Shown: in pieces, positions 15,525 through 45,113 of the stretch
Numbering within the stretch: position 1 is the first letter of the stretch
Layout: each line of letters begins with the position of its first letter
From: Candidatus Lustribacter telmatis
GTDB lineage: Bacteria > Vulcanimicrobiota > Vulcanimicrobiia > Vulcanimicrobiales > Vulcanimicrobiaceae
DNA length: 64,000 bases
Reading direction: 5' to 3'
NCBI GenBank assembly: GCA_003164045.1
Contig: PLRU01000032.1
Location: forward strand, 47,509 to 111,508
Position numbers and translations under genes: made by a program
The notes under the pieces: generated by a model
Seen by the model: only the letters and a program-made list of their open reading frames with translations
What the model was told of the DNA's origin: nothing
Database searches by the model: none

Positions 15525-15576
15525 GCCCGGGTGCTGCGGCGAGGAGAATGATGGCGCCTTCCAACACGGAGCGGGG

Positions 15577-26377: not shown

Positions 26378-27076
26378 ATGAAAGCGCCGTCCATGAACGA
26401 TCGCATCGTCACACCGCCCTCCGCGGTCGATGTTACCCGCGTGCAGTGGCTCAAAATGGTCGTCCGCAAGCGAATCCTGGCCGGTGAGTACCGGCCCGGG
26501 TCGTGGATCCGCGAGGTGGAACTGCAGCGGGAGTTTGGGCTTTCGAACGGGCCGGTTCGCGAAGCGTTGCAGAGCGCAGTCGCCGACGGACTGGCGGAGC
26601 GGGCGCCGTTTCGGGGCGTTCGCGTCATCGACCTCAGCGAACGCGAAATCGTCGAGCTCTTTGAAGTGCGGTTCGCGCTGCTCGGGTTCGCAGCGGAGCT
26701 TGCCGCCGAACGCGCCGGTGCGGCGGCCCAGGCAAGTGCGGCGGAACTCAAGGCGACGGTCCACAAGGCGGCGAGCGATGATACTGCGGCCGACGTGTGG
26801 CTGCGCGGTGATCTCTCGCATTGGGTCTTCGAACTCGCCGGGAACGAACGGCTGCGCGAAGCGTACGAGCGCCCATTGTTGCAGTCGTTGCTCTACGTTG
26901 CGGTCGCCCGCAAGCAGGAACGCGTGCGGATCGCGCTCGTGCCCGCAGTCGTCGACGTAATCGATGCGATCGCGAACGGTCAGGCCGCCCAGGCGCGCGA
27001 AGCCGTGCGCGCCCTAACGCTCCAAACTTTGCGCCATCTTCGGCACGTTGCGCCGATCGACAACGGAGAACTCTGA
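26378..27076 (+). CDS. GntR-family transcriptional regulator (FCD/FadR subfamily)
   Basis: 232 residues. The winged helix spans about residues 20-85 (KRILAGEYRPGSWIREVELQ, then FGLSNGPVREALQ, then ADGLAERAPFRGVRV). An all-alpha FCD effector domain follows from about residue 90. Such regulators usually repress an adjacent catabolic operon until an organic acid binds. The start could be ATG 26378 or ATG 26393. The stop overlaps the next gene's start (TGATG), so regulator and binding protein are coupled. Confidence 0.9.
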   Translation: MKAPSMNDRIVTPPSAVDVTRVQWLKMVVRKRILAGEYRPGSWIREVELQREFGLSNGPVREALQSAVADGLAERAPFRGVRVIDLSEREIVELFEVRFALLGFAAELAAERAGAAAQASAAELKATVHKAASDDTAADVWLRGDLSHWVFELAGNERLREAYERPLLQSLLYVAVARKQERVRIALVPAVVDVIDAIANGQAAQAREAVRALTLQTLRHLRHVAPIDNGEL

Positions 27077-28245: not shown

Positions 28246-29174
28246 ATCGGCGCGCGTTCGTAGCCGGTTCGACGGCCGGTGCGCTCATACTCGGTGCGCC
28301 GAGGAGCGCCTCGGCCGCGGACCTTCCAGCCGTTTCAATCGGAACGATCCCGAGCGAAATGGACGCGATCATCGACTACGGTTTGGACCTGGGCTACTTT
28401 AAGAGCGCGGGCATCGACGTGCACAATACGGTGCTGCGCAGCGGGCCGGCCGTCGCCGCGGCGCTCGCCGGCGGGTCGCTCGACGCGGGTCTGATCAACA
28501 CGGGCACGCTCGCCGCGGCCCGTTCGCGCGGCGTGCCGCTCAAGTTCTTTGCGTCGTGCGCGATTCAGACGCCGGGCAACGACCTGGCGCTCGTGCGCAA
28601 AGACTCGCCCATCAAGTCGGTCACGGATCTCGGCGGAAAAACCGTCGGCATCGTGGCGATCAACACGGTGCAAAACGCCGTCGTGCGCTTGTGGCTCGAT
28701 AAAGCCGGCGTCGATTCGAAGAGCGTGAAGTTTCTCGAAGTGCCGTATCCGCAGATGCAAGCCGCGCTCGAGCAGGGCCGCGTCGACGTCACGCTGCCGG
28801 CCGAGCCGTTCCTCACCGCTGCCCGCGCCACGACGCGGAGCATCGGCGATCCGGACGAAGCGATGCCGCCGCGCTACCTGATCTTCGGCTTCGCCGCAAA
28901 CGAAGCATGGCTCAAGGCGAACGCGCCGCTCGCGAAGTCGCTGGCAGCGGCGATCAGCCGCTCGGCGGCGTGGGGCAACGGCCATCGTGGCGAGTCCGCG
29001 CAGACGCTCGTGCGCACGTTGAACCTCGATCCGGCGAAGGTCGGTGAGATGTTGCGCACCGACTACGGTACGGCGATCGATCCGGCGCAGATCAAACCGG
29101 TGATCGATCTGATGGTCAAGTACGGCTTATTGGATAAACCGGTCGACGCGAACGATTTAATCTGGCGTCCGTAA
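28242..29174 (+). CDS. ABC transporter substrate-binding protein, SsuA/TauA/NMT1-like, Tat signal
   Basis: 310 residues. The start is TTG 28242, overlapping the previous stop as TTGA. The N-terminus NRRAFVAGSTAGALILGAP is a twin-arginine signal, implying export of a folded protein. The mature part begins with SIGTIPSEMDAIIDYGLDLGYFKSAG, the type II fold of nitrate/sulfonate/taurine and thiamine-precursor binding proteins. It is the third gene of a GntR-LivJ-SsuA operon, and two unrelated binding protein families in one operon without a transporter is unusual. Confidence 0.9.
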   Translation: MNRRAFVAGSTAGALILGAPRSASAADLPAVSIGTIPSEMDAIIDYGLDLGYFKSAGIDVHNTVLRSGPAVAAALAGGSLDAGLINTGTLAAARSRGVPLKFFASCAIQTPGNDLALVRKDSPIKSVTDLGGKTVGIVAINTVQNAVVRLWLDKAGVDSKSVKFLEVPYPQMQAALEQGRVDVTLPAEPFLTAARATTRSIGDPDEAMPPRYLIFGFAANEAWLKANAPLAKSLAAAISRSAAWGNGHRGESAQTLVRTLNLDPAKVGEMLRTDYGTAIDPAQIKPVIDLMVKYGLLDKPVDANDLIWRP

Positions 29175-29181
29175 AGCGCCC

Positions 29182-29883
29182 TTACGCGACGGGTGCGCTT
29201 ACGAGCGTATCGAGGCAGGCGAATGCCCGCTCTTCGGAGAGCTTCGCTACCGCGGGATCGTAGCGCGGCGATTCCTCGCGCGCAAAGCCGTGATGCGCGC
29301 CGTCGTACACCGCGATCTCGCCGGTCTTTCCCGCGAGAGCCGTGCGAATCTGCTCGACTTGTTCGAGCGGCACGAGCGGGTCGATCCCGGCGAAGTGAAA
29401 GCTGAACGGCTTCGTTACGGCGCCGGCCTCGTTCAGGTACCGGTGGATGTGCGAGCCGTGGAACGCGACCGCCGCGTCGGCGCCGAGCCGCGTCAAACCG
29501 AGAAACGCGTGCCGTCCGCCGAAACAAAACCCCAATACGGCGAACTTTCCGTTCCACTCCGGGCGGCGGGCGAGTGCATCGCGCGTGCGGCGCATGTCGT
29601 CGACCCCGTCTTCGTTGTCGTAGCCCTTGATGCGCGCTTCGGCTGCTTCGCGCTGCGTATCGTCGAGCGCTCCGCCGCCCACGCGCCAGAAAAAGTCCGG
29701 CGCGACGGCGATGAAACCGCGTGACGCGTAGCGATCCATGGTGTGTTTCAAACCCGCCGTCACGCCGTAGATCGATGAAACGACGATGATCGCCGGCGCC
29801 GGCTTGCGCTCGGGCAAAACGAGATGCGCCTCGAACGTGCCGCCGTCCGCGCGTGGTATCGCGATCGTTTCCGCCGTTGCCAT
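29182..29883 (-). CDS. Dienelactone hydrolase family protein
   Basis: 233-residue alpha/beta hydrolase. The nucleophile is Cys in GFCFGGRHAF, the acid lies in FAGIDPLVP, and the His is in YDGAHHGFA: the Cys-Asp-His triad of dienelactone hydrolase, which opens the lactone ring of muconate-derived dienelactones. I choose ATG 29883 because it overlaps the upstream stop as ATGA; a longer form from 29919 adds 12 unconserved residues. It forms a two-gene operon with the HD-domain gene. Confidence 0.88.
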   Translation of the reverse strand: MATAETIAIPRADGGTFEAHLVLPERKPAPAIIVVSSIYGVTAGLKHTMDRYASRGFIAVAPDFFWRVGGGALDDTQREAAEARIKGYDNEDGVDDMRRTRDALARRPEWNGKFAVLGFCFGGRHAFLGLTRLGADAAVAFHGSHIHRYLNEAGAVTKPFSFHFAGIDPLVPLEQVEQIRTALAGKTGEIAVYDGAHHGFAREESPRYDPAVAKLSEERAFACLDTLVSAPVA

Positions 29884-30647
29884 CAGAGCATCCGGGTCGG
29901 CATGTTGATCGTGCGCCACATGTGCGCCGACGAGGAATCATCGAAGCCGAGGCCCTCTTCGGGCTGACGAAAGTGCTTCTCGATGATGTCGATGAAGTCG
30001 TCGATCGACACGTTCACCGTGGGGTCGAACGAGTAGATATCGTTGCACGTGATCATGCGCGCAGTCATGTACCACTTGTGCTTGCGCGCGCGTTCGTAGT
30101 CGCGCTGGATGTGCGGGTCGGGCTTGTAGTCGGCCCCGAAGTTCTGGATGTAGACTTGCGGGTACTCGTAGCCGACATCGGGGTCGGCATAGAAACGCAA
30201 CGATTGGTGCGCGCGCACGGCCCACGTAATCTCTTTATCGACATAGGGCTCGATCAACTGCGCGCCCCAGTAGCCGTGATCGCCTTGAATCAAGCCGGTA
30301 ACGGCGATATCGTGCAGCAGGCAGGCCAGAACGATCTTGTCCTCGAGCCCATTGAGCCGCGCGATGCGCGCCGATTGCAGCAAGTGCGTCGGCGCAAAGC
30401 GCAGACGGAAGAAGTCGACCAGCGTCGGCTTATCGGGCATCCTCGGCAGCCGCGGATCGGGACCCATCAGCATTTTCTTGCCGCGGTTATTGGGATCGCG
30501 CGACTTCACCAGCGGCCCGAGCCGCGGATCGCGCTCGCCCGACAGAAACAGCGCGGACTTCACCGGTATGAGGTTCTCGAGTTCGAGTGCCATGCGCGCT
30601 TCCAACTCGTCCGCAAGCACCGAGAGCGACTTCTCGCCGTTCACCAC
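29883..30647 (-). CDS. HD-domain metal-dependent protein, possible HD-type diiron oxygenase
   Basis: 254 residues. A histidine in THLLQSARIARLNGL is followed by LLHDIAV, then HGYWGAQLIEPY, VRAHQSLRFY and TCNDIYSFD. This order of His, His-Asp, His, His and a late Asp is the HD superfamily metal site. The HGxxGAxxL and VRxHxxxRxY elements recall PhnZ/MIOX-like HD oxygenases more than phosphohydrolases. The start is GTG 30647 (or GTG 30644). It is operonic with a dienelactone hydrolase, which favours a catabolic oxygenase role; that role is inference. Confidence 0.7.
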   Translation of the reverse strand: MVNGEKSLSVLADELEARMALELENLIPVKSALFLSGERDPRLGPLVKSRDPNNRGKKMLMGPDPRLPRMPDKPTLVDFFRLRFAPTHLLQSARIARLNGLEDKIVLACLLHDIAVTGLIQGDHGYWGAQLIEPYVDKEITWAVRAHQSLRFYADPDVGYEYPQVYIQNFGADYKPDPHIQRDYERARKHKWYMTARMITCNDIYSFDPTVNVSIDDFIDIIEKHFRQPEEGLGFDDSSSAHMWRTINMPTRML

Positions 30648-32230: not shown

Positions 32231-32297
32231 CCCTTACGTCTGTGCGCCCAGCGTGTTTCGGCAAGAGTACATGACCGCTTTGGGGGACCATGCGTCT

Positions 32298-33221
32298 ATG
32301 AGTCCCACCATAAGTCGCGTCGCAGTCATCGGCGCCGGTACGATCGGCGCGAGCTGGGCGGCGTATTTTCTTGCTCGCGGCTGCGAGGTCAACGTCACCG
32401 ACCCGTTTCGGGAGGCCGATGCGATTCGGCGCGCCGTCGCCGGGCTGTGGCCGGTTCTCGAGCGCGCCGGCTTGAGTCCCGGCGCGACGCTCGAACGCTT
32501 GCGGGTCGTTGCCGATCCGGGAAGCGCGGTGCGGGACGTGGGTTTCGTGCAGGAGAGCGGTCCGGAAGACGAAGCCGCGAAGATCGATCTCTTCGAACTC
32601 TTGGATGCGGTTGCTCCCGACGCAACGCTCATTGCATCGAGCTCGTCTGGACTCTTGATGAGTCGCATTCAATCCCGTTGCAAACATCCGCAACGCTGCG
32701 TCATCGGACATCCGTTCAATCCGCCCCATCTGATGCCGCTGGTCGAAGTCGTCGGCGGCGATCGAACCGGCGAAGCTGCGATTGCCGCAACGATCGCGTT
32801 TTACCGGAGCATCGGTAAGTATCCGATACACATCCGCAAAGAGGTCCGTGGACACATTGCCAACCGGCTGCAAGCCGCGCTGTGGCGGGAAGCGATTCAC
32901 TTGATGGATAGCGGCGTCGCGAGCGTGGCCGACATCGATGCGGCCGTCGCCTACGGGCCCGGATTACGGTGGGCGTTCATGGGACCGTCGCTGACCTTTC
33001 ACCTTGCCGGCGGCGAGGGCGGCATGCAATATTTTCTCGATCATCTCGGCGATGCGGTGCAGAGCTGGTTCGACGATCTCGGCGCTCCTTCGCTCACTCC
33101 CGAGATTCGCAAGCAACTCGTCGACGGGGTCGCCGCTTCCACCGGCGAACGATCAATTGGCGATCTCGCGAAAAAACGAGACGCCTATCTCATGGAAGTG
33201 ATCAAACTACTCGACCGTTAA
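32298..33221 (+). CDS. 3-hydroxyacyl-CoA dehydrogenase family (L-carnitine dehydrogenase / lambda-crystallin-like)
   Basis: 307 residues. The NAD-binding motif is VAVIGAGTIGASWAAYF. The catalytic His is in CVIGHPFNPPHLMPLVEVVGG, a form typical of carnitine dehydrogenase and CRYL1 rather than FadB. An ANRLQAALWREAIHLMDSG helix and the C-terminal domain follow. The start is ATG 32298; ATG 32271 in the same frame is an alternative. It oxidises a 3-hydroxyacid or its CoA ester to the 3-keto form. It is followed by the TetR gene on the same strand. Confidence 0.88.
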   Translation: MSPTISRVAVIGAGTIGASWAAYFLARGCEVNVTDPFREADAIRRAVAGLWPVLERAGLSPGATLERLRVVADPGSAVRDVGFVQESGPEDEAAKIDLFELLDAVAPDATLIASSSSGLLMSRIQSRCKHPQRCVIGHPFNPPHLMPLVEVVGGDRTGEAAIAATIAFYRSIGKYPIHIRKEVRGHIANRLQAALWREAIHLMDSGVASVADIDAAVAYGPGLRWAFMGPSLTFHLAGGEGGMQYFLDHLGDAVQSWFDDLGAPSLTPEIRKQLVDGVAASTGERSIGDLAKKRDAYLMEVIKLLDR

Positions 33222-33281: not shown

Positions 33282-33950
33282 ATGAAAAAGCCTCCTGCCA
33301 AGCGCCCCCGCCGGTCCCAGGAAGATCGAAGCCGCGAGACGCGGCTGCAAATCCTAGAAGCCGCGCTCAAGGTCATGCTGAAAAGTGGGTACACCGGCTT
33401 TCGCGTCGCGGATGTTGCAACGCGCGGCGGAGTTTCGCGCGGGGCCATCTTGCATCACTTTCCGACCAAAGATGACCTCGTTGCGCATACGATCGAGCAC
33501 GCGTACGAGCGGGCGCTCGCGCGGAGCCGCAGTCGCGCGTCGCATCTTGACGCATCCAAGGATCCTATCGAAGCGATGATTATCGATTCGAAGGAATTCT
33601 ATTTTGGCGACTTCTTCTTTTTGTTAGCGACGATGGGCGCTTCTAAAGGCACCGGTGGAAGAGCGATCACCGTCCCTCTGACGCGTCAGTATCGCCTCCC
33701 GGCCGAATACGCGTGGCAGCAGACGTTGGAAGCCCGTGGCCTCCCCCGTGAGTTGGCGGAGGACACCGTTTGGCTAGCCCTCAGCATCGTCCGCGGCCTA
33801 GCAATACGAACCGCGTTTCAGAACGAGCCCGAGCGCTTTCAACGGCTGTTCGATCTTTTTCGCGAAATCTTCTGGACATATTGGGACGTGAAAACGGCGT
33901 CGAAACCTTTAGGTGGCCGAGGTGCTGCTAAGAAGGCCACGAGTCGCTAA
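33282..33950 (+). CDS. TetR-family transcriptional regulator
   Basis: 222 residues. The DNA-binding domain spans about residues 17-65: TRLQILEAALKVMLKSG, then VADVATRGGVSRGAILHHFPTKDDLV. A helical ligand domain follows. The C-terminus is basic (GAAKKATSR). Composition is noticeably less GC-rich than genes further left. It probably controls the ring-cleavage cluster that follows, where a divergent promoter carries repeated TCCGGT palindromes. The 3' end overlaps the convergent dienelactone hydrolase by 42 bases. Confidence 0.92.
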   Translation: MKKPPAKRPRRSQEDRSRETRLQILEAALKVMLKSGYTGFRVADVATRGGVSRGAILHHFPTKDDLVAHTIEHAYERALARSRSRASHLDASKDPIEAMIIDSKEFYFGDFFFLLATMGASKGTGGRAITVPLTRQYRLPAEYAWQQTLEARGLPRELAEDTVWLALSIVRGLAIRTAFQNEPERFQRLFDLFREIFWTYWDVKTASKPLGGRGAAKKATSR

Positions 33951-34628
33951 GAACTCTCTGGAAAGCGACCACGCCTGACGTGCAGCGTTCGCGTTGTAGA
34001 CGGCCGGTCGCCGATCGCAGAAGAAGCCGTGGTCGGCGTGCGAAAACGTTACTTCCGTGAAGTCTTTTTTCGCTTCGTTCAGCGCGTCGGCAGCCTTTCG
34101 CGTTCCTTCCGGGCGAATATACTCATCGAGGCCGGCCCAAAACAGGAGCAACGGTCCGAGTTGTTTATCTGCGAGGTCGAGCGCCGCAGGCGTAATACTG
34201 CCGTAGAAGTCAATGGCTGCTGCGAGCGGGTGATGAGCGTTCGCGATGAACGAGACTCGCCCGCCCATGCAAAAGCCGACCGCCGCCAGCCGCTCCGGAC
34301 CGAGTCCGGCGCTCACCCCGAGCCATTTCACGGTTGCGCCGATATCGTCCACGAGGCCATCTCGCGTAATCGTCTCGTTCATAACCCGCACCGCCGCAGC
34401 CATATCGGAATAAGGAACCTCAGCGATGCCCGCGCGGTGGTAGAGCTCCGGAACAACTGCGAGTAAGCCCAGGTCCGCGAAGCTGCGAGCGACGTCTCGC
34501 ATGTGGTCATTGACCCCGAAGGCTTCCTGAAACACCATGATGCCGGCGCCGGCAGCGCGTTCGGCATCCGGCGTTGCGACATGCAAACGCATAGTGCCCG
34601 CGCGTTCTACCGGGACCTCGACTACCAT
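33909..34628 (-). CDS. Dienelactone hydrolase family protein
   Basis: 239 residues. Cys nucleophile in VGFCMGGRVSF, acid in LFWAGLDEYI and His in SHADHGFFCD complete the triad. It begins with a strand-rich segment and MVFQEAFGVNDHMRDVARSFAD, the classical DLH core. The start is ATG 34628, four bases after the stop of the C-C hydrolase, so they share an operon. It could act on a lactone or enol product downstream of ring cleavage. It is only distantly similar to the copy at 29182. Confidence 0.9.
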   Translation of the reverse strand: MVVEVPVERAGTMRLHVATPDAERAAGAGIMVFQEAFGVNDHMRDVARSFADLGLLAVVPELYHRAGIAEVPYSDMAAAVRVMNETITRDGLVDDIGATVKWLGVSAGLGPERLAAVGFCMGGRVSFIANAHHPLAAAIDFYGSITPAALDLADKQLGPLLLFWAGLDEYIRPEGTRKAADALNEAKKDFTEVTFSHADHGFFCDRRPAVYNANAARQAWSLSREFLATRGLLSSTSAT

Positions 34629-34632
34629 GCGC

Positions 34633-35484
34633 TTAGCGTCCGCCTTCGAAAAAGAGTGCGGCCAGCGCGTTGAATTCTGCGGCGCGCTCGACTTGTGTCC
34701 AATGACCGCACTTCCCAAAAACGTGCAGCTGCGCGTCCGCAATGAGCTCCAATAAACGATAGGAGACGGACAACGGCACGACTTTGTCCTCTCGGCCATG
34801 GAAGAGGAGCGTCGGGGCCGTGATCTTGCGTATATCGTCCTCCGGCGTCGACAACTTCGCGATCCACGGTTCGCGCGGCGCGGGAAAGAGGGCCGCGTAC
34901 GATTCTTGGAAGCCAGGCTGCATGCTCGCCTCGTACCGCATTCTCACCAAATCGCGTGTCGCGAGCGCGGGGTCATAGGCGAAGTGCTCCGCGATCATCG
35001 CGTGCATGTTTTCGATGCTGGGCGTATAGCCCCAGATCGCCTCGAGCGACGGCGACATCTTGAATTCCAGGCCGCCGGACCCCATCAGCGCCATGCGCCG
35101 CACGAGGTCGGGACGCTCGGAAGCCACTCGCAGAGATAGCGCCCCGCCCAGGGAATTGCCGAGCAACATCGCCGGTTCGCCGACCACATCCTCGATGACG
35201 GCAATTAACTGATCTACCCAGTCGCGGTAGTGGTAGCGTTCACCGGGCTTGCGCTCCGTATAGCCAAATCCAAGAATGTCATAGGCGTAGACGTGAAAGC
35301 CCTTCGACGCTAAGAACGGCAGCGTGCTCCGCCAATTCGCCCAGGCAGTTACTCCGGGTCCCGATCCGTGAATGAGCACGATCGGCGCCCCGGTTCCCGC
35401 CGTGTGGATGTGGGTCTGAAAGCCACGTACGTTTACGAACTCGCCCTTCTCGACGGACGAACCCGCGGCAGCCTCGGTGGTCAT
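34633..35484 (-). CDS. Alpha/beta hydrolase, meta-cleavage product C-C bond hydrolase (BphD/MhpC-like)
   Basis: Hydrolyses the vinylogous 1,5-diketone formed by extradiol ring cleavage. 283 residues; oxyanion region LIHGSGPGVTAWANW (a signature of this subfamily); Ser111 in GNSLGG; Asp233 in HGREDKVVP; His261 in GKCGHWTQVE. The start is ATG 35484 with GGAGGGG upstream. It lies 16 bases downstream of the extradiol dioxygenase gene on the same strand, giving the expected order of ring-cleavage enzyme then hydrolase. Confidence 0.92.
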   Translation of the reverse strand: MTTEAAAGSSVEKGEFVNVRGFQTHIHTAGTGAPIVLIHGSGPGVTAWANWRSTLPFLASKGFHVYAYDILGFGYTERKPGERYHYRDWVDQLIAVIEDVVGEPAMLLGNSLGGALSLRVASERPDLVRRMALMGSGGLEFKMSPSLEAIWGYTPSIENMHAMIAEHFAYDPALATRDLVRMRYEASMQPGFQESYAALFPAPREPWIAKLSTPEDDIRKITAPTLLFHGREDKVVPLSVSYRLLELIADAQLHVFGKCGHWTQVERAAEFNALAALFFEGGR

Positions 35485-35500
35485 AGTATTTACCCCTCCG

Positions 35501-36436
35501 TTAGTGTAACGATCCCGCAGGATCTTCCGCGCCGTCGAGCGCTGCAAATTTGCCGACCGCGCCAAATGCGGCCGCCGGTTCACTGCCCCAATAGTCGAAT
35601 GATTCCGGCACAAAAGGCAGGTGTCGCGCCGCACGTGGATCCACTTCCGGGAACTCTTCCATGCCGCTGCTGAATTCGAACGTGAAGCCGTCCGGGTCGG
35701 TGAAGTATAAGAAGACGCTTCCGGATGGCGGATGGCGGCCGGGCCCATACACGACGGGCACCTCTTGATGCTTTAAGCGATAGATTGAGCGACCGATATC
35801 GTCGAGGTGGTCCACCATGAAGTTGACGTGCTGTAGGCGGTTCTCACTACCCGGTACGACCGCGAAACTATGATGGTAGACGTTCGGAAAGCAGCGCAGG
35901 AACGCACATTCTCCGATGTAGTCGGAAACGCGAAAGTTCAACTCGTCGAGGAAGAACCGTACGAAGGAGCTGAGATCGGTAACGCTCACGACGGCATGGC
36001 CGAGCCGGGCGATGTTGGTGAAGGTGCGCCGAAAGGCCGGCAACGATGCGGCGGCCGCCGGGCTGTACAACTCGACGGTGAGGCCGCAGGAAGGCTCGCG
36101 AAAGCGAAAAGCGGCTTGCTGTCCGAAGGCGGCGCGTTCGGCATCCGGTACCGTCCAGACCGGGATCCCGAGTTGCTGTAGATGTGCGTGCGCGAGCTCG
36201 AGAAAGCCCTCGTCCTCCATCTCGAAAGCGATGCGGCGCATCGCCGGCGCGTCACCGTCGTAAAAGGCGAGATCGCACGACGAGGTGCCGCTCGTCAAGA
36301 GAGAAACGCCGGCGGACTCTTCTGAACCTGGGACGAGCTCGAGTCCCATCGTTTCTCGCTGGAACGCAATCGAGCGCGCGCGGTCCGTCACGTTCAAAGC
36401 GACATATCCGAGGCGTCGGTAACGGAGATTCGGCAA
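35501..36436 (-). CDS. Type I extradiol dioxygenase (VOC family, catechol / 2,3-dihydroxybiphenyl dioxygenase-like)
   Basis: Cleaves a catechol ring meta to the hydroxyls. 311 residues in two VOC modules. Iron ligands are His147 (LGHAVV), His203 (LQHVNF) and Glu254 (FTFEFS); catalytic His188 or His189 (VYHHSFAV) and Tyr244 (YFTDPDG) are in place. All active-site residues of the BphC type are thus present. It is the first gene of the minus-strand arm and is divergent from the binding-protein/Rieske arm. A polycyclic or substituted catechol is likely but not proven. Confidence 0.93.
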   Translation of the reverse strand: MPNLRYRRLGYVALNVTDRARSIAFQRETMGLELVPGSEESAGVSLLTSGTSSCDLAFYDGDAPAMRRIAFEMEDEGFLELAHAHLQQLGIPVWTVPDAERAAFGQQAAFRFREPSCGLTVELYSPAAAASLPAFRRTFTNIARLGHAVVSVTDLSSFVRFFLDELNFRVSDYIGECAFLRCFPNVYHHSFAVVPGSENRLQHVNFMVDHLDDIGRSIYRLKHQEVPVVYGPGRHPPSGSVFLYFTDPDGFTFEFSSGMEEFPEVDPRAARHLPFVPESFDYWGSEPAAAFGAVGKFAALDGAEDPAGSLH

Positions 36437-36476
36437 CAGGCGCTCCTTAAGCGTGCTTCACGGCCGCCGGAAAGTT

Positions 36477-36607
36477 ACCGGCTGGCAGTCCGGTTTCTGG
36501 TCATCCTAGACCTGTCGTTGCGACGCTGTCAAGCTGTATACAAAGCCTTCTGGTGGCTTGACACCTCGAACGTCCGGTGCTATGCAGATACCGGATGGAA
36601 ATCCGGT
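36477..36607. promoter_or_regulatory. Candidate operator cluster with TCCGGT half-sites, including a perfect palindrome
   Basis: A perfect inverted repeat ACCGGAT-GGAA-ATCCGGT lies at 36590-36607, just downstream of the -10 element. Further half-sites are ACCGG (36477-36481) facing CCGGT (36490-36494) and GTCCGGT (36572-36578) inside the promoter spacer. Two-fold symmetric sites overlapping a promoter fit a TetR repressor, and the nearest regulator gene is the TetR at 33282. Confidence 0.55.
36558..36586 (+). promoter_or_regulatory. Sigma70-type promoter of the Rieske operon
   Basis: A perfect TTGACA -35 box (36558-36563) is followed by a 17-base spacer and TATGCA (36581-36586). A TGn extension lies directly upstream of the -10. 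The expected transcription start is about 36593, inside the palindrome at 36590-36607, and about 48 bases before the TTG start codon at 36641. Confidence 0.6.
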
Positions 36608-36640
36608 TTACGTCGCCGCGAGTGGCATTAGGGGGTTATC

Positions 36641-37807
36641 TTGACCCGTTTCCTCACCCGATGCTTCGCCTTTTTTTGTGCCGCCGTGTGGGTCGGCAGT
36701 AGTCCTGCGAATGCCGCCGACCCCGTCGAGATCAATGTCATGGTCTCGCAAACGGGCTCCCTTGCGTTCTACGGCGGGAAGCAGGCCGAAGCGTTTCGTG
36801 CGATCGAGATGTACGCAAACGCAAACGGGGGGGTCGGGGGCCGCCCGGTCAAGTTCGTCCTCCACGACGATCAGTCGAATCCGCAGACGGCCGTACAACT
36901 TGCGAACCAACTTATCGAGCAGAAGGTCCCGGTCATCGTTGGGCCGGTACTGACATCCGCCTGCGCTGCAATAATGCCGTTACTCGCGCAGAACGGCCCG
37001 GTCGACCTGTGCTATTCGCCGGTGATCACGCCTCCAGCGAGAGGCTACGTGTTCCGCGCCGCACCGCGTATCGAAGACGTGCAATCGGTCATGTTACGTT
37101 ACTTCAAGAATCGCGGTCTGAAAAAGCTTGCGATCATCACGGCGACCGATGCGAGCGGACAGACGTTCGATCAGAAGCTCGATGTGACGCTGACACACAA
37201 AGAGTTCCAAGATCTGGCGATCGTCGCCCACGAGCACTTTAGTCCGGGCGATCTCGGCGTCGCTGCACAAGTGGCGCGTATCAAAGCGGCGCAGCCCGGC
37301 GCGATCATAACCTTTGCCGTCGGTACGTCGTTCGGCACCGTCCTGCACGCAATATCCGATTCAGGGCTCGACGTCCCCGTGTATGGCTCCGGTGCCAATC
37401 TCAGCGAGCTGCAGATGCAATCGTACGCCGCCTTCATGCCGAAGGAGCTCATCCTCAACAACGCCCAGGGACTCGTCGAATACCCCGGTGCGCCAGCAGC
37501 CGAGAAACTCCAGCAAGCGGCATTCTTCAAAGCGATGAAAGCCGCCGGTCTTCGCGGTGAGCCCCCGCAGCAGATTGCCTGGGACTTTGCGATACTCGCC
37601 ATCGACGCGCTGCGCGACTTGGGTCCAAAAGCGACGGCGATGCAAATCCGCGACTACATTCTGCATCAGCGCTCGTGGGCCGGTCTCCAGGGCATCTACA
37701 ACTTCACTTCCGGAGACCAAACGGGGCTCGGCGAGAGTGGAGTAGCGCTACTGCGCTGGAACCCGTCGAAAAACACTTGGGAACTTGCGGCCAGCGGGGC
37801 GCAATAG
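36641..37807 (+). CDS. ABC transporter substrate-binding protein, LivJ/Peripla_BP_6 type
   Basis: 388 residues with a Sec signal (MTRFLTRCFAFFCAAVWVG..., cleaved near SPANA-A) and a type I periplasmic fold (VMVSQTGSLAFYGGKQAEAFRA, then GGRPVKFVLHDDQS). The start is TTG 36641 behind an AGGGGG site. It is the first gene of the operon driven by the promoter at 36558 and is followed by the Rieske oxygenase gene, so it probably binds the oxygenase substrate. No transport permease or ATPase is present. Confidence 0.9.
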   Translation: MTRFLTRCFAFFCAAVWVGSSPANAADPVEINVMVSQTGSLAFYGGKQAEAFRAIEMYANANGGVGGRPVKFVLHDDQSNPQTAVQLANQLIEQKVPVIVGPVLTSACAAIMPLLAQNGPVDLCYSPVITPPARGYVFRAAPRIEDVQSVMLRYFKNRGLKKLAIITATDASGQTFDQKLDVTLTHKEFQDLAIVAHEHFSPGDLGVAAQVARIKAAQPGAIITFAVGTSFGTVLHAISDSGLDVPVYGSGANLSELQMQSYAAFMPKELILNNAQGLVEYPGAPAAEKLQQAAFFKAMKAAGLRGEPPQQIAWDFAILAIDALRDLGPKATAMQIRDYILHQRSWAGLQGIYNFTSGDQTGLGESGVALLRWNPSKNTWELAASGAQ

Positions 37808-37842
37808 CAAACCAACATACGTCCGAGGAAGGGCCAGGAGCC

Positions 37843-39114
37843 GTGGAACTCAACACAGGCAGCGGAAATGCGGAAGCGGCGAGCGAGGTAAAAAGGCCGC
37901 GCGTACGCGACATGCGACGCTATATCCCGGAGCTCGGATTATTCGAGTACTGGCATCCGGCGATTGAGGCCAAACGCGTCGGGTGGAAGAAGCCCGTGCC
38001 GCTGACGATTCTCGAGCAGCCGCTGGCGCTGTTCCGGGACGGCGAGGGTAATGTCGCAGCGGTAACGGACATCTGCCCCCATCGAGGTGCATCGCTGTCC
38101 AAGGGCGCGTGTCATTTCAAGGGGACGATCACGTGCCCGTATCACGCCTGGACGTTCGATGCGCTGGGGGAGTGCCTGGCCGTCCTTGGTGAGGGTCCGA
38201 CCTCTGTCATTCCCGGCCGCAAAGATGCGCGCATTCGCACGTTCCCGACCAAAACAATCCACGGCATGGTCTTCATCTGGATGGGAACCGGGGTGCCGGC
38301 TCCCATCGAAGAGGATGTTCCCATCGAGTTCTTTTTGCCGGACTTTACGATTCGCTACGAGACCGTCATCTGGAACGTGAACTGGCGGCCGTCGGTTGAG
38401 AATATTCTCGACGCGCATCCGTTCTACGTGCACCGCAACTCGGTCGAATTTATGTTTACCTCTCGCGACGCTTTCGTCGGCTTATCGCATCTCGGACCTC
38501 GGCGACCAAAAGCGGAGGTCCATAACGGGCGGGCCGTCGGGTTCAACTGGCACAATCCCGGGGATCCAGGCTTCAAGCGCGACCCGGCCGAGCCGGAGAA
38601 GAGCTATAGCCAAAGCTATCCGGGACTCGGCGGGCAGAAGTGGCCGCCGACCGAGCATCGGCTGCTTTGGCATTCGATCGTATCGCGCTTCCAGCGTAGC
38701 GTCCCACCGCTGCTCGAATCACGTGAATGGAGCTGCGCGTTTCATTTACCGGGGTATGCACGCTTCGACTACGGCTCGTTTGTCTATAGCCGGGCCACGG
38801 TTCCGATCGATAAGAAGACCTGCCGCATCATCTACTTCTTTGCCACGCGATCCAAGAGCAAAGCCGGTAAGCTCTATCATTTCCTGCGCTTCCATCTTTG
38901 GAAGAACTGGTCGATGCATTTCAATTTTTCCGGGCAGGACGAGGTCGTGATCGTTCCGCAGAATTACGACGCCCCCGAGCATCTCTCACCGACCGATATC
39001 ATCCCTGTATCGGTACGAAGGTTGATCCTCAGTCACGCACGCGATCTCCAAGGGAAAGCGCAGGAGGCCGTCCCTGATGAATTTCGAGTCGCCCCAGCCG
39101 AGGCGGTTCATTGA
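37843..39114 (+). CDS. Rieske non-heme iron oxygenase, alpha subunit
   Basis: 423 residues. The Rieske cluster is C78, H80, C98 and H101 (ICPHRG, CPYHAW). The mononuclear iron block is NWRPSVENILDAHPFYVHRN with Asp190, His192 and His197. Several aromatic-rich stretches (LRFHLWKNWSMHFNF) recall oxygenases for large substrates. The start is GTG 37843 with AGGAG immediately before it; ATG 37911 is an alternative. No ferredoxin or reductase lies in the cluster. It would supply the diol or hydroxylated ring cleaved by the extradiol enzyme; the missing diol dehydrogenase makes monohydroxylation or demethylation possible. Confidence 0.9.
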   Translation: MELNTGSGNAEAASEVKRPRVRDMRRYIPELGLFEYWHPAIEAKRVGWKKPVPLTILEQPLALFRDGEGNVAAVTDICPHRGASLSKGACHFKGTITCPYHAWTFDALGECLAVLGEGPTSVIPGRKDARIRTFPTKTIHGMVFIWMGTGVPAPIEEDVPIEFFLPDFTIRYETVIWNVNWRPSVENILDAHPFYVHRNSVEFMFTSRDAFVGLSHLGPRRPKAEVHNGRAVGFNWHNPGDPGFKRDPAEPEKSYSQSYPGLGGQKWPPTEHRLLWHSIVSRFQRSVPPLLESREWSCAFHLPGYARFDYGSFVYSRATVPIDKKTCRIIYFFATRSKSKAGKLYHFLRFHLWKNWSMHFNFSGQDEVVIVPQNYDAPEHLSPTDIIPVSVRRLILSHARDLQGKAQEAVPDEFRVAPAEAVH

Positions 39115-39373
39115 CGGTCCGTGGCCGGCGCGCGTCGCGCTAGGCGCGGCGCTGAAGCAGGCCTACGATCGAACCGTGAGCCTCTTGTGCGCAGACGGCG
39201 AGTTGATCGTCGGCGACATCGTGTTTGTTTCGGAAGAGAACCAAGAAGTGCTGTACGACTTGGTGAGTTCGAATAGGCCGGAACTCTATCATGATCGCTG
39301 GGTCGGCTTCCACGTCTTTAGTCTCCCACTCGACCAAATCGTCTCCGTAACGCTCGAAGAATCGTGGAACTGA
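39077..39373 (+). CDS. Hypothetical 98-residue protein within the Rieske operon
   Basis: No family recognised. It overlaps the Rieske gene by 38 bases and ends one base before the lactonase start, so it is very likely translated with them. The sequence is soluble-looking and strand-rich (DGELIVGDIVFVSEENQEVLYDLVSS, FHVFSLPLDQIVSVTLEESWN), somewhat like a small beta-barrel such as an Sm-like or SH3-type fold, and acidic overall. It may be an accessory or stabilising factor for the oxygenase; that is speculation. Confidence 0.65.
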   Translation: MNFESPQPRRFIDGPWPARVALGAALKQAYDRTVSLLCADGELIVGDIVFVSEENQEVLYDLVSSNRPELYHDRWVGFHVFSLPLDQIVSVTLEESWN

Positions 39374-39374
39374 A

Positions 39375-40232
39375 GTGAGCAAACCGGTCGCCGTCGACAC
39401 CCATCACCATTTCTGGCGTTACGTCAAGGGTCGCGACGCCTGGCTCGACAACCGCGAGGACTTCGCCCAACTTCGACGCGACTTTCTCGCGCCTGAATTC
39501 GAAGCGCATCTACGCGCGAGCGGCGTGGACCGGACCGTGATCGTTCAGGCGGCGAATACGGTCGAAGATACCGAGTCCATGGTGGCTACCGCAAAACAGT
39601 TTCCATTTATCGCCGGCATCGTCGGTTGGCTGCCGCTCGATGACCCGAAGGCAACCGAAGCGCGGCTCAATCTGTATGCCGACGAGCCGCTGATAAAAGG
39701 CGTGCGTCATCTGATCTTGATCGACCCGGATCCCAATTGGCAAGTGCGTCCGGGAGTGATCGAGAGCATGGGGCTGCTTGCGGAGCGCGGCTACACCTGG
39801 GACAGTAACGCCGGTACGGTGGCGCATCTCGAGCAAGTCGTAATGCTCGCTGAACGGTACCCGCACTTAAAACAGGTCATCGACCATCTGGGAAAGCCGA
39901 CCATCGCAGCGGGCCTCGAGCAACCTTGGACCTCGCTGATGGCGCGCATTGCGACCTACCCGAATGTCTTTGTAAAAATATCCGGAATTGGGCACGTTAC
40001 GTCGATCACGGATGGCGGACGGGTTGCCTTCCAGCCGTTTGTCGACCACATCCTCGAACGCTTCGGACCGCAACGGGTCATGCTGGGCAGCAACTGGCCG
40101 GTGGCGGAACTCTTTGGTAACTTTGAGCAGACGTGGAGCACGACGCTCGCGCTACTCAACGGATGCTCACCCATCGACCGCGCGCAGATTCTGGGCCAGT
40201 CGGCCTCACGGTTCTACGGTCTCGGGTTATGA
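39375..40232 (+). CDS. TIM-barrel amidohydrolase / lactonase (L-fuconolactonase-like family)
   Basis: 285 residues. The N-terminal metal motif is DTHHHFWRYV; a central IDHLGKP strand and C-terminal MLGSNWPVAEL follow, all typical of the fuconolactonase/PDC-hydrolase branch of the amidohydrolase superfamily. GSNWP has Asn where many members have Asp (GSDWP), which is common in fuconolactonase-like proteins. The start is GTG 39375. It is the last gene of the binding-protein/Rieske operon and probably hydrolyses a lactone intermediate. Confidence 0.87.
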   Translation: MSKPVAVDTHHHFWRYVKGRDAWLDNREDFAQLRRDFLAPEFEAHLRASGVDRTVIVQAANTVEDTESMVATAKQFPFIAGIVGWLPLDDPKATEARLNLYADEPLIKGVRHLILIDPDPNWQVRPGVIESMGLLAERGYTWDSNAGTVAHLEQVVMLAERYPHLKQVIDHLGKPTIAAGLEQPWTSLMARIATYPNVFVKISGIGHVTSITDGGRVAFQPFVDHILERFGPQRVMLGSNWPVAELFGNFEQTWSTTLALLNGCSPIDRAQILGQSASRFYGLGL

Positions 40233-42406: not shown

Positions 42407-43279
42407 ATGGATGACAGCGGTCGCATCGCGCTCTTGTGCACCTCGCACGGACCGTTGATGCTCAGAGACCCGGAGCACGTGCAAGGTCGCGAGTTCCGCG
42501 CCGCGTTCGCACGAGCGCAGGCGTTCGTGAAACGCTTCGATCCCGAACTGCTCGTGTTCTTCGGCACCGAACATCGGCGCACGCTGCAGGATATCGTGGC
42601 GCCGTTCACCGTGTTCTGCACGGCGCGCGGATACGGTGATTTCGAAACGTCGGATGGCCCGTACGACATCCCCACAGAATTGTCGGTCGCGCTGCTCGAT
42701 GCGCTCGCCGCTGCCGATATCGACGCGGCGCACGGCGAGGATGCGAAGTTGGATCACGGTTTCGGGTTGACGATGGGCGAGCTCTTCGGCGCGAACGACG
42801 CGTTGCCGGTGATTCCGATCCTCATCAATTGCGTCAACCCGCCGATGCCGTCGATGAAGCGCTCGCGTGCGCTGGGCACCGCGGCCGGCCGCTACCTGCG
42901 CACGCTGAAGAAGCGCGTGCTGGTCTTGGCGTCGGGCGGGCTCTCGCACAGTCCGGTTACGTTGACGCGCGCCAATCAGAAGCTTACCGAAGCCGAGCGC
43001 GTTTACCGTCCGCCGGACTATATCGAATCGGCTGGGCGCATGATCAATCCCGATTGGGATAGAGCGTTTCTGAGTGCGTTGCGCAGCGAAGACTGGGCGA
43101 CGCTCGAGCGGTTGTCGACCGACGAGATCGAAGCGGCCGGGGTCGGCGCGAACGAAGTGCGCACGTGGCTAGCCGCGACCGCTGCCGCGCAGCCGGCGTC
43201 GATGCACACCGACTACGAGCCGGTGCCGGCCTGGATCACCGGCATGGGCATCGCCTACGGCCCGCTCGAGGCGGCATGA
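42407..43279 (+). CDS. Type II extradiol dioxygenase (LigB superfamily, MhpB-like)
   Basis: 290 residues. Family blocks are LLCTSHGPLML (iron-ligand His14), KLDHGFGLTMGELFG (second His), and LVLASGGLSHSPVT. The fold matches 2,3-dihydroxyphenylpropionate 1,2-dioxygenase. It cleaves catechol-type rings but is unrelated in evolution to the VOC-type enzyme at 35501. The start is ATG 42407. The stop overlaps the next gene as ATGA, pairing it with an alpha/beta hydrolase just as MhpB is paired with MhpC. Confidence 0.9.
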   Translation: MDDSGRIALLCTSHGPLMLRDPEHVQGREFRAAFARAQAFVKRFDPELLVFFGTEHRRTLQDIVAPFTVFCTARGYGDFETSDGPYDIPTELSVALLDALAAADIDAAHGEDAKLDHGFGLTMGELFGANDALPVIPILINCVNPPMPSMKRSRALGTAAGRYLRTLKKRVLVLASGGLSHSPVTLTRANQKLTEAERVYRPPDYIESAGRMINPDWDRAFLSALRSEDWATLERLSTDEIEAAGVGANEVRTWLAATAAAQPASMHTDYEPVPAWITGMGIAYGPLEAA

Positions 43280-44169
43280 CGACGGCGGCAACGCCGAGCC
43301 TATGGGTGCGCGCGCTCGGCTGGGAGATCGGCACCGGCGGGAAGCGCTATCGTTCGCGCGTGCTGCGCGCCGGTAGCGGAACGCGCACGGTCGTGATGCT
43401 GCACGGTCAAGGCGGCCATCTGGAGAACTTCAGCCGCACGATTCCGGCCTTCGAAGCGCACTACCGCGTGCTCGCGTACGACATGCTCTGGCATGGCCTC
43501 GGTGCGAAGCCGGAATTCGACGAGCGGCTCATCCCGGCGTTCGTCGATCAACTCGTCGACATGCTCGATGCGGAAGGTCTTGCGACGTGCACCTTGCTCG
43601 CGCAGTCGCTCGGCGGCTGGGTGGGAGCGGCGTTCGCCGCGCAATTTCCCGAGCGCGTCGATGCGATCGTGCTCGTGACGCCGATGGGCCTCGGCACGCC
43701 GGCGCGCGCGATGCCCGATCCCGAGCGGCGTGCATCGACGCTGGACGCGATGCGCGATGCGCTCGGCGATCCGACCCCGGCGGGCGTGCGCCGGCGCATG
43801 GAGCGGTTGGTGATCGATCCGCGCGAACTCGACGATGAAGTGATCGCGGTGCGCACCGCACTCTACCAACGTCCGGACGTGAACGCATCGCTGCGGCGCG
43901 TCGCCGAAGCGTATCTCGGTGCAGGCGGCAGCGCCGAGCAATTTACCGTCGGACCCGAGACGCTCGCGCGCATCACCGCACCCGCGCTCGTGTATTGGGG
44001 CTCGGCAAACGCGCAGCCGCCCGAAGCGGGCCGCGAGATCCAAGCCGCGCTCGGCGATCCCAAGGCGGAATTCCACTGCGCCGAGGCCGGTCATTGGGCG
44101 CACTACGAACGCAGCGATGAATTCAATCGCGTTGCGCTCGACTTCTTGGCGCGGAGGCTGCCCCGATAA
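43276..44169 (+). CDS. Alpha/beta hydrolase paired with the extradiol dioxygenase (MhpC-like), altered catalytic acid
   Basis: 297 residues. Oxyanion region MLHGQGGHLENF, nucleophile Ser111 in LLAQSLGGWVG, His273 in EAGHWAHYE. Where the paralogue at 34633 has Asp (GREDKVVP), this protein reads GSANAQPP, placing Asn245 at the acid position. The triad may use another acid or the reaction may differ. The start is ATG 43276 (ATGA overlap with the dioxygenase) and the stop shares one base with the next start (TAATG), so the three genes are co-translated. Confidence 0.85.
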   Translation: MTTAATPSLWVRALGWEIGTGGKRYRSRVLRAGSGTRTVVMLHGQGGHLENFSRTIPAFEAHYRVLAYDMLWHGLGAKPEFDERLIPAFVDQLVDMLDAEGLATCTLLAQSLGGWVGAAFAAQFPERVDAIVLVTPMGLGTPARAMPDPERRASTLDAMRDALGDPTPAGVRRRMERLVIDPRELDDEVIAVRTALYQRPDVNASLRRVAEAYLGAGGSAEQFTVGPETLARITAPALVYWGSANAQPPEAGREIQAALGDPKAEFHCAEAGHWAHYERSDEFNRVALDFLARRLPR

Positions 44170-45113
44170 TGCGCCGCGCCGATCTTCTCGCGCTTGCGAG
44201 CGCCGCTGCGGCCTATGCCGCCGTTCCACTGCCCGCGCGTGCCGCGGCGCCGCTGCGCGTCGCGCTCGCTGCAACGGATTCGTCGATCCTCATTCCCGCG
44301 GCGGACACGTTCGGTTATCTCTCGCGCGTCGGCTTGGCAGTAGACACGCAGTTCATGTCAAACGGCGCGGCAACGATGGCGGCGTTGTTGGGCGGCAGCA
44401 TCGATCTCGGCGCTACGAATAGTTTGTCGTTCTTGCAAGCGCGCGACAAGGGGCTGCCGTTGAAGATCGTTGCGGCCCAAGCGATCTATCGCGCGGGGGC
44501 GGCCTCGACGGCGCTGGTGACGGGCAAGGATTCGCCGTTGCGGACGGCTCGCGACCTGACCGGCAAGATCGTTGCGGTGAACGGCCTCGGGGGTTCTCCC
44601 CACATTGCGGTCAAGGCTTGGATCGACAAGAACGGCGGCGACGCAAACGCCGTGCGCTTCGTCGAGCTCGCGTTTCCGGCGATGCCCATGGGGCTCGCCG
44701 GCGGGCGCGTGGATGCGGCGATGATCGCGGAGCCGGCCCTTAGCGCGGCGCTCGAGAACGGCCGCCTGCTCGGAGACGCATACGGGGCGATCGGTCCGCT
44801 CTGGATCTCCGACTGCATCGCGGCGACGGAGTCGTGGCTCGATTCCCACGGCGACGCCGCCCGAGGGCTCTCGCAGGCGCTCCACGCCGCGGCGATCTGG
44901 GCCAACCGCAACCACGATAAGACGGCCGACCTCGCCGCCCGGACGCTCAAGCTCGACCCGCTGGTCGTGCGCACGATGCGGCGCGCGGTCTTCGCCGAGA
45001 CCGTGACCCCGCGCATGATGCAGCCGGTGATTGACGCGGGCGTGACGTACGGCGCGCTGGGGAAGGCCCAGCCCGCCGAAGACGCCTTCAGCCGCGTCGC
45101 CCTCTGGCCATAG
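44169..45113 (+). CDS. ABC transporter substrate-binding protein, SsuA/NMT1-like
   Basis: 314 residues. The N-terminus MRRADLLALASAAAAYAAVPL looks like a twin-arginine-type or Sec signal, followed by a type II periplasmic fold (GAATMAALLGGSIDLGATNS, DLTGKIVAVNG, then AKAWIDKNGG-like helices). It is related to the protein at 28242 in layout. It is the last gene of the MhpB/MhpC-like operon and has no transporter partners. Confidence 0.88.
   Translation: MRRADLLALASAAAAYAAVPLPARAAAPLRVALAATDSSILIPAADTFGYLSRVGLAVDTQFMSNGAATMAALLGGSIDLGATNSLSFLQARDKGLPLKIVAAQAIYRAGAASTALVTGKDSPLRTARDLTGKIVAVNGLGGSPHIAVKAWIDKNGGDANAVRFVELAFPAMPMGLAGGRVDAAMIAEPALSAALENGRLLGDAYGAIGPLWISDCIAATESWLDSHGDAARGLSQALHAAAIWANRNHDKTADLAARTLKLDPLVVRTMRRAVFAETVTPRMMQPVIDAGVTYGALGKAQPAEDAFSRVALWP

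What the first reader, a model, noticed from the sequence alone, without database searches (positions are those of the whole stretch)
33282..40232. Self-contained ring-cleavage module with an unusual gene set
TetR, dienelactone hydrolase, C-C hydrolase and type I extradiol dioxygenase face a divergent binding protein, Rieske oxygenase, unknown 98-aa protein and TIM-barrel lactonase. All active-site residues of the ring-cleavage enzymes are present, but no diol dehydrogenase, ferredoxin or reductase is included, and a lactonase plus dienelactone hydrolase is an unexpected addition to a meta-cleavage route. The sequence here also looks less GC-rich than its surroundings, suggesting transfer. A new aromatic (perhaps polycyclic or lactone-forming) pathway is plausible.
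Basis: partly seen in the sequence, partly recalled or inferred. Interest (0 to 1): 0.72.

Follow-up and report, generated by a model that had tools for sequence, protein, structure and literature searches.

The report
Ring-opening cassette in Rieske-hoarding bacterium
Two back-to-back gene sets here are predicted to turn a one-ring aromatic compound into a catechol and break the ring open; they lie in a genome with 114 Rieske oxygenase domains, more than twice as many as any of 25 comparison genomes searched, so the helper enzymes missing from the set are likely shared across the genome.

Summary

The missing reductase and lower pathway are a feature of the genome: 114 Rieske domains (genus-mate 139; 115 other genomes of the class 0–14; 25 hand-picked comparison genomes 4–53), three FNR-type reductases (one PaaE-like), no BphA4-type reductase and one DmpG aldolase. 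A paralogous Rieske cluster elsewhere does carry a ferredoxin and a BenD-like dehydrogenase. I read the module as one 'spoke' of a shared-electron-supply system, probably making a catechol by attack on a substituted carbon of an unknown one-ring substrate. Function is inferred throughout.

The parts
33282..33950 (+). TetR-family regulator, 222 aa, convergent with DLH (3' ends overlap by 42 bp); candidate repressor of both operons
   Evidence: PF00440 46.7 bits; 35% and 34% identical to TetR proteins of two plasmid clusters that also carry relatives of the extradiol enzyme and C-C hydrolase
33909..34628 (-). dienelactone-hydrolase family protein, 239 aa from ATG 34628; Cys120-Asp168-His200
   Evidence: PF01738 141.5 bits; residues and start
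34633..35484 (-). meta-cleavage product C-C hydrolase, 283 aa; Ser111-Asp233-His261 counted from ATG
   Evidence: CumD 297 bits with aligned triad; about 50% identity to the best plasmid hydrolases
35501..36436 (-). type I two-domain extradiol dioxygenase, 311 aa from TTG after AAGGAG; His147, His203, Glu254, HH188-189
   Evidence: PF00903; alignments; positions; many relatives named 2,3-dihydroxy-p-cumate/2,3-dihydroxybenzoate 3,4-dioxygenase by JGI
36476..36496 (.). operator-like site 1, TACCGGCTGGCAGTCCGGTTT, 6 bp downstream of the minus-strand -10
   Evidence: 18 of 21 identical to site 2; 0 of 300 shuffles above 16; only two copies at 0-1 mismatch in 5.0 Mb
36503..36532 (-). promoter-like TTGACA-N18-TAGGAT for the extradiol operon
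   Evidence: 10 of 12; promoter-like sites are at chance level over the scanned 8.5 kb as a whole
36558..36586 (+). promoter-like TTGACA-N17-TATGCA with TGc before it (extended -10) for the binding-protein operon
   Evidence: read from the sequence; not listed by the scan
36589..36609 (.). operator-like site 2, TACCGGATGGAAATCCGGTTT, just downstream of the plus-strand -10; perfect dyad ACCGGAT-N4-ATCCGGT
36641..37807 (+). periplasmic substrate-binding protein, 388 aa
   Evidence: PF13458 139.7 bits; 40% to the binding protein beside the paralogous Rieske cluster at G000:C55
37843..39114 (+). CarAa-like Rieske oxygenase alpha subunit, 423 aa from GTG 37843; Rieske Cys85/His87/Cys105/His108, iron ligands His199/His204 and, inferred, Asp373 (numbered from codon 37822)
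   Evidence: PF00355, PF11723; CarAa best in PDB by sequence and by fold; residues invariant in an alignment of 38 sequences
39077..39373 (+). 98-aa orphan protein, start overlapping the end of the Rieske gene by 38 bp; no conserved Cys, so not a [2Fe-2S] ferredoxin
   Evidence: 5 clusters, its own included, in a word-based search of about 5.8 billion proteins; no Pfam match at E 10 for any of 5 members; 1 of 149 phylum genomes
39375..40232 (+). Amidohydro_2 protein nearest to sugar-lactonase and PDC-hydrolase sequences, 285 aa; His10, His12, His171, Asn240 in place of Asp
   Evidence: PF04909 142.8 bits; NF052480 150.5 bits, far under its cut-off 400; alignments

Best explanation
The region holds two divergent operons predicted to act together as a catabolic cassette for a one-ring aromatic compound, in which a CarAa-like Rieske oxygenase would make a catechol, an extradiol enzyme would open it, and a CumD-type hydrolase would split the product. 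Shown: the genes, their order, intact catalytic residues in the extradiol enzyme, C-C hydrolase and DLH, the two matching operator-like sites, the composition, and the genome-wide counts. Inferred: the TetR protein represses both operons through the two sites; the binding protein captures the substrate; the Rieske enzyme attacks a ring carbon that carries a leaving or heteroatom substituent, so that the product re-aromatises without a diol dehydrogenase, as CarAa does; electrons come from one of two reductases encoded elsewhere in the genome; the 2-hydroxypentadienoate is finished by the single DmpG-type pathway on another contig. DLH and the amidohydrolase would open an ester or lactone of the substrate or of a side product, which is the weakest step.
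Against: No substrate, product or expression data. The nearest paralogous Rieske (39-43%) in the same genome sits beside a Rieske ferredoxin and a BenD-like dehydrogenase, so this subfamily may make true cis-diols. CarAa similarity by sequence covers only the N-terminal half. JGI names many extradiol relatives as acting on carboxylated catechols, which would need a decarboxylase that was not identified here. The Asn in place of Asp may mean the amidohydrolase is not a lactonase. Contig-length linkage is indirect. TetR-operator pairing is a guess; there is no such site upstream of TetR. Reductases of other families were not searched for.
Confidence: 0.45

Rival explanations
1. The Rieske enzyme makes an ordinary cis-dihydrodiol and a dehydrogenase encoded elsewhere (such as the BenD-like enzyme at G000:C55) re-aromatises it; the cassette is simply split across the genome.
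For: The paralogous C55 cluster has a BenD-like SDR (246.6 bits to PRK12823, under the cut-off 322) and a Rieske ferredoxin next to a 39-43% identical Rieske enzyme. The genome already seems to share reductases and the lower pathway. Two plasmid relatives of the extradiol enzyme sit next to an SDR.
Against: The C55 enzyme is under 45% identical, and its dehydrogenase lies with its own oxygenase. On the closest contigs no dehydrogenase linkage could be tested.
Confidence: 0.3
2. True angular dioxygenase pathway for a fused or bridged two-ring heterocycle (carbazole, dibenzofuran, diaryl ether).
For: CarAa is the best match by sequence and fold. The six plasmid records hit at 1e-20 are pCAR1, two further Pseudomonas plasmids with the same match, two Novosphingobium sp. 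KA1 records and one Sphingobium baderi plasmid; pCAR1 and KA1 are carbazole replicons.
Against: The C-C hydrolase is of the one-ring CumD type, not CarC or BphD. The extradiol enzyme is type I, unlike the ring-cleavage enzyme of pCAR1. Identity to CarAa is only about 32% over half the length.
Confidence: 0.12
3. The amidohydrolase and DLH are passengers or serve sugar or ester hydrolysis, and only SBP-Rieske and TetR-extradiol-hydrolase form the pathway.
For: Amidohydrolase relatives on two plasmids lie among sugar-related genes (a third region has no annotation), and its best NCBIfam model is L-fuconolactonase. It has no significant similarity to the amidohydrolases of four plasmid genes in meta-cleavage clusters (best E 0.85).
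Against: The amidohydrolase gene begins 1 bp after the 98-aa gene, and DLH 4 bp after the C-C hydrolase gene; tight packing suggests a shared role.
Confidence: 0.2
4. The Rieske count reflects binning of several organisms or redundancy in the assemblies, not a real expansion.
For: Contamination estimates are 6.8% (G000) and 8% (G077).
Against: A second assembly of the same genus shows 139 domains, and the matches in G000 are spread over 43 contigs by my count. Such contamination is unlikely to supply about 100 genes when none of the 115 other class genomes exceeds 14.
Confidence: 0.07

Closest known systems
CarAa, carbazole 1,9a-dioxygenase oxygenase (pCAR1, pCAR3)
   Different: About 32% identity over half the length; no CarAc/CarAd partners in the cassette; different ring-cleavage enzyme and hydrolase class; has a 98-aa downstream partner gene
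CumD/XylF/DmpD/EtbD one-ring meta-cleavage hydrolases (these short names are recalled)
   Same: About 50% identity to the best plasmid relatives, Ser-Asp-His triad, GNSxGG motif
   Different: Gly at the position aligned with CumD Ala129 (residue number recalled); operon partners differ
cmt/dhb/opa pathways (p-cumate, 2,3-dihydroxybenzoate, o-phthalate; passages of PMC6362003)
   Same: Many extradiol relatives carry this database name; a CumD-like hydrolase is present; so is a metal-dependent-hydrolase-superfamily enzyme, as OpaD is
   Different: No diol dehydrogenase, no recognisable decarboxylase; oxygenase of the CarAa type, with no beta-subunit gene
SAR202 group VII/IV ring-hydroxylating dioxygenase expansions (passages of PMC6946804)
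   Same: Lineage-specific expansion of ring-hydroxylating oxygenases, some annotated as carbazole dioxygenase
   Different: 62 COG4638 copies at most there; 114 and 139 PF00355 domains here (ferredoxins included), in a lineage that is probably another phylum, with reductases counted

Membership tests
CarAa-type (PF11723) Rieske oxygenase | Rieske CxH...CxxH and 2-His-1-Asp iron site | tested here: met
   Cys85, His87, Cys105, His108, His199, His204, Asp373 invariant in 38 sequences; Asp373 as the ligand is inferred from its position
CarAa-type (PF11723) Rieske oxygenase | PF11723 domain above the curated cut-off | tested here: met
   31.8 bits, cut-off 24.4
CarAa-type (PF11723) Rieske oxygenase | CarAa fold | tested here: met
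CarAa-type (PF11723) Rieske oxygenase | homotrimer; angular dioxygenation | not testable with these tools
   needs biochemistry
car (carbazole) gene cluster | Rieske ferredoxin and pCAR1-type (two-subunit) ring-cleavage enzyme alongside | tested here: not met
   absent from 33282-40232; present on pCAR1
CumD-type C-C hydrolase | best match among meta-cleavage hydrolases, triad intact | tested here: met
type I extradiol dioxygenase | two VOC domains, His-His-Glu, HHS acid-base motif | tested here: met
type I extradiol dioxygenase | an NCBIfam equivalog (HpaD, BphC, C23O, HsaC) above cut-off | tested here: not met
   best 90.5 bits against cut-offs of 320 and more
L-fuconolactonase / PDC hydrolase lactonases | NF052480 cut-off | tested here: not met
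   150.5 bits against 400
L-fuconolactonase / PDC hydrolase lactonases | HxH and active-site Asp | tested here: not met
   HxH present, Asp replaced by Asn240; 4dlf and 2ffi have Asp, 6uvz has Asn there; two of three plasmid relatives read have Asp, the third gave no match to the motif searched
p-cumate/2,3-dihydroxybenzoate 3,4-cleavage pathway | dihydrodiol dehydrogenase and carboxy-semialdehyde decarboxylase | tested here: not met
   no SDR in the cassette; amidohydrolase without significant BLAST similarity to those of plasmid clusters
dienelactone hydrolase family | Cys-Asp-His triad and PF01738 | tested here: met
   (triad definition recalled)

The most novel reading that the evidence does not exclude
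A bacterial genus outside the usual degraders runs a hub-and-spoke oxidation system: about a hundred Rieske oxygenases in small regulated cassettes, many with their own binding protein and ring-cleavage enzymes, all fed by one or two reductases and drained by one lower pathway. The cassette here is such a spoke, with a private two-site operator and a new 98-aa partner protein made with its oxygenase.
Probability: 0.4. Interest if true: 0.75.

Novelty: new variant of a known kind. Interest (0 to 1): 0.55.

Why it matters
If true, one organism would carry the largest set of Rieske oxygenases I met in my searches, with a ratio of oxygenases to dedicated reductases near 50 to 1. That makes promiscuous electron transfer testable: which features let one reductase serve many oxygenases? 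It would also offer a large natural library of oxygenases for plant- and humus-derived aromatics from a lineage whose other sampled members carry few. The cassette itself gives a tractable first case: a defined operator pair, an orphan partner protein and an oxygenase-extradiol-hydrolase chain.

Tried and rejected
Carbazole or dibenzofuran pathway: set aside as the main reading because the C-C hydrolase is of the one-ring type.

98-aa protein as a ferredoxin: rejected, no conserved cysteine. Its fold could not be predicted (mean pLDDT 41 from 5 sequences), so no structure search was made with it. Pfam at E 10 gave nothing and PDB nothing above noise.

Amidohydrolase as the decarboxylase of plasmid clusters: no significant similarity; three of those plasmid amidohydrolases match no NCBIfam model.

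Finding the module by the Rieske protein in named species genomes: 581 stretches encode a relative, the 80 kept loci have 23-48% identity, mostly over the Rieske domain and its neighbourhood only. One looked like a fuller relative (L063, 32% over residues 35-393). Its neighbourhood was not analysed. The tool warns that records near the window's own genome may be left out.

Operator upstream of TetR: none. Terminator and promoter scans: at chance level over the region.

Naming the organism: no tool names it. A 57% identical extradiol relative is named Candidatus Lustribacter, a genus placed beside Vulcanimicrobium in the phylum Eremiobacterota (passages of PMC9758169). I take the phylum as likely, not shown.

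Literature: searches, of which I saw the listings. I noticed no report of Rieske expansion in that phylum there; PMC9535955 (passages) reports some aromatic-degradation genes in it. PMC6946804 gives 62 copies as the largest in SAR202 (passages); PMC6123686 gives smaller numbers (passages). Most subscription journals are not in the library.
Full report
What is there. The window lies at G000:C98:47509-111508 of a 5.0-Mb assembly in 102 contigs, 93.5% complete with 6.8% contamination. Between 33282 and 40232 there are two divergent gene runs. On the minus strand: extradiol dioxygenase (35501-36436), C-C hydrolase (34633-35484) and DLH (33909-34628), with gaps of 16 and 4 bp. On the plus strand: binding protein (36641-37807), Rieske oxygenase (GTG at 37843 to 39114), a 98-aa protein (39077-39373) and an amidohydrolase (39375-40232), the last three overlapping or 1 bp apart. 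TetR (33282-33950) is on the plus strand and meets DLH tail to tail. That each run is one transcript is inferred from spacing.

Control region. The 204 bp between the runs hold two direct copies of TACCGGnTGGnAnTCCGGTTT, at 36476-36496 and 36589-36609, identical at 18 of 21 positions. In 300 dinucleotide-preserving shuffles of the region the best pair reached 16 once and never more. The pattern was derived from these two copies, so their match to it is by construction. But a search of the whole genome with 20 of its bases and up to 2 mismatches found only three other places, all at 2 mismatches, and none for the reversed control. Site 2 has a perfect dyad of 7-bp arms; site 1 is a weaker dyad. 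Each copy lies just downstream of a TTGACA-type promoter-like sequence on its side: TTGACA-N18-TAGGAT on the minus strand and TTGACA-N17-TATGCA, with an extended -10, on the plus strand (my reading; one search does not list it). This looks like joint repression of both operons. TetR as the repressor is inferred.

Composition. GC dips to 0.588-0.614 in 2-kb windows over 32-41 kb; two windows elsewhere are as low (0.602, 0.609). GC3 of the eight genes averages 0.714 against 0.805 for 27 hand-picked window genes (p 0.0003; 5 of the 27 are below 0.76) and 0.794 for 88 ORFs from other loci of the same genome (p 0.00006, 10 of 88 below 0.74). The gene at 32283-33221 shares the low GC3 (0.69). Acquisition from elsewhere is plausible. 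The module was not found in the one genus-mate held, G077 (84% complete): no Rieske at E 1e-40, best extradiol 33%, no 98-aa protein.

The ring-opening part. The C-C hydrolase matches CumD at 297 bits, an uncharacterised serine hydrolase at 162, 1j1i (CarC, name recalled) at 137 and BphD at 133, with the triad aligned to CumD. The best of 113 plasmid records at 1e-40 are about 50% identical, among them Rhodococcus jostii RHA1 and Pseudomonas putida plasmids; that these are ethylbenzene and toluene/xylene pathway enzymes is recalled. This points to a one-ring product. The extradiol enzyme has its ligands. Many relatives are named 2,3-dihydroxy-p-cumate/2,3-dihydroxybenzoate 3,4-dioxygenase by JGI, but no NCBIfam equivalog cut-off is reached. 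Of four plasmid regions read around extradiol relatives, two Alphaproteobacteria plasmids also carry relatives of the C-C hydrolase and TetR, so this trio may be an older core.

The odd additions. DLH has a Cys-Asp-His triad. The amidohydrolase falls nearest to L-fuconolactonase and a putative 2-pyrone-4,6-dicarboxylate hydrolase but well under the curated cut-off, and has Asn240 where 4dlf and 2ffi have Asp; 6uvz, an amidohydrolase of no stated function, also has Asn. Whether it is a lactonase is open. The 98-aa protein has five clusters in all, its own included (a word-based search). Two of them share contig length and source tag with Rieske relatives of 92% and 75% identity (8365 and 9890 bp). 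It occurs in 1 of 149 genomes of the phylum. It keeps no cysteine and has no recognised domain.

Linkage elsewhere. The protein search gives no neighbourhoods, so I compared longest-contig length and source tag. In the 120 rows shown of 379 Rieske and of 1122 extradiol matches, four lengths coincide: 8365 (lgn), 9635 (jgi) and 10537 (lgn) bp with the same tag, at 92/88%, 63/56% and 66/55% identity, and 2583 bp with different tags, which I dropped. This is indirect evidence for a conserved pair.

The genome. A search for PF00355 in G000 gave 114 matches on 43 contigs (contigs by my count). Of these, 97 lie in open frames of 300 codons or more, 5 in 200-299 and 12 below 200 (from the rows). Only 18 PF00848 domains were found, so most of these proteins do not match the classical alpha-subunit domain. 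The genus-mate G077 has 139. The other 115 of 117 class genomes have 0 to 14. Twenty-five named comparison genomes, chosen by hand from 80 loci with Rieske hits and so biased towards oxygenase-rich species, have 4 to 53, the highest in a 9.2-Mb Cupriavidus. Against this the genome has three FNR-type NAD-binding domains. One is close to PaaE, the phenylacetyl-CoA epoxidase reductase (419.9 bits, cut-off 420.8). One lies beside a LigXa_C-type Rieske oxygenase, and the third has FAD/NAD/Fer2 order. Reductase_C of BphA4-type reductases: none (the control detects it in 3 of 14 genomes). DmpG: one, in a cluster with an aldehyde dehydrogenase and an FAA-hydrolase-family protein, and three Rieske-domain ORFs nearby. 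Reductases of other families were not searched, and the assembly is not complete.

Reading. The absent reductase, ferredoxin and lower pathway are therefore what one expects of many cassettes in this genome. The absent diol dehydrogenase is more telling, because the paralogous cluster at G000:C55 does have a BenD-like dehydrogenase and a Rieske ferredoxin next to its oxygenase, with a binding protein and an extradiol enzyme nearby. Either the module's oxygenase makes a catechol directly, or the dehydrogenase is supplied in trans. I favour the first, moderately.

Novelty. The parts, apart from the 98-aa protein, belong to known families. The gene combination, the operator pair and the 98-aa partner are new as far as I could see. 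The size of the Rieske set exceeds the 62 copies given as the largest for SAR202 (passages of PMC6946804), the largest figure I met in the searches named under Tried and rejected. The counts use different models (COG4638 there, PF00355 here, which also counts ferredoxins).

Noticed in passing
whole assembly G000; genus-mate G077: 114 and 139 Rieske domains in 5.0 and 5.4 Mb, against 0-14 in the other 115 class genomes; only three FNR-type NAD-binding domains in G000.
   Followed up: partly
window 42407-45113: A second ring-cleavage set: LigB-type extradiol enzyme of the 3-carboxyethylcatechol 2,3-dioxygenase kind, an alpha/beta hydrolase and an NMT1-type binding protein, at normal GC3.
   Followed up: no
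window 14325-15992: Another Rieske oxygenase on the minus strand, near an IclR-like regulator (16866-17486) and a molybdopterin-binding protein (18137-20464).
   Followed up: no
window 26821-29919: Two further binding proteins (Peripla_BP_6 and NMT1 types) and a second DLH-family protein 27.5% identical to the module's.
   Followed up: no
L099 (G000:C55:9000-28900): Paralogous cluster: Rieske ferredoxin, CarAa-like Rieske oxygenase, BenD-like SDR, FAD hydroxylase, FAA hydrolase, binding protein, extradiol enzyme.
   Followed up: partly
L118 and L119 (G000:C35 and C41): Two similar cassettes, each with a 101-aa Rieske ferredoxin, a 294-aa protein and a 113-aa protein with like beginnings (first 40 residues seen only).
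   Followed up: no
L116 (G000:C80:225000-244900): The only DmpG match of the genome, with three Rieske-domain ORFs nearby.
   Followed up: partly
L099:9902-11269: 455-aa protein with an AHSA1 domain at its C terminus and no recognised N-terminal domain, beside the extradiol enzyme gene.
   Followed up: no
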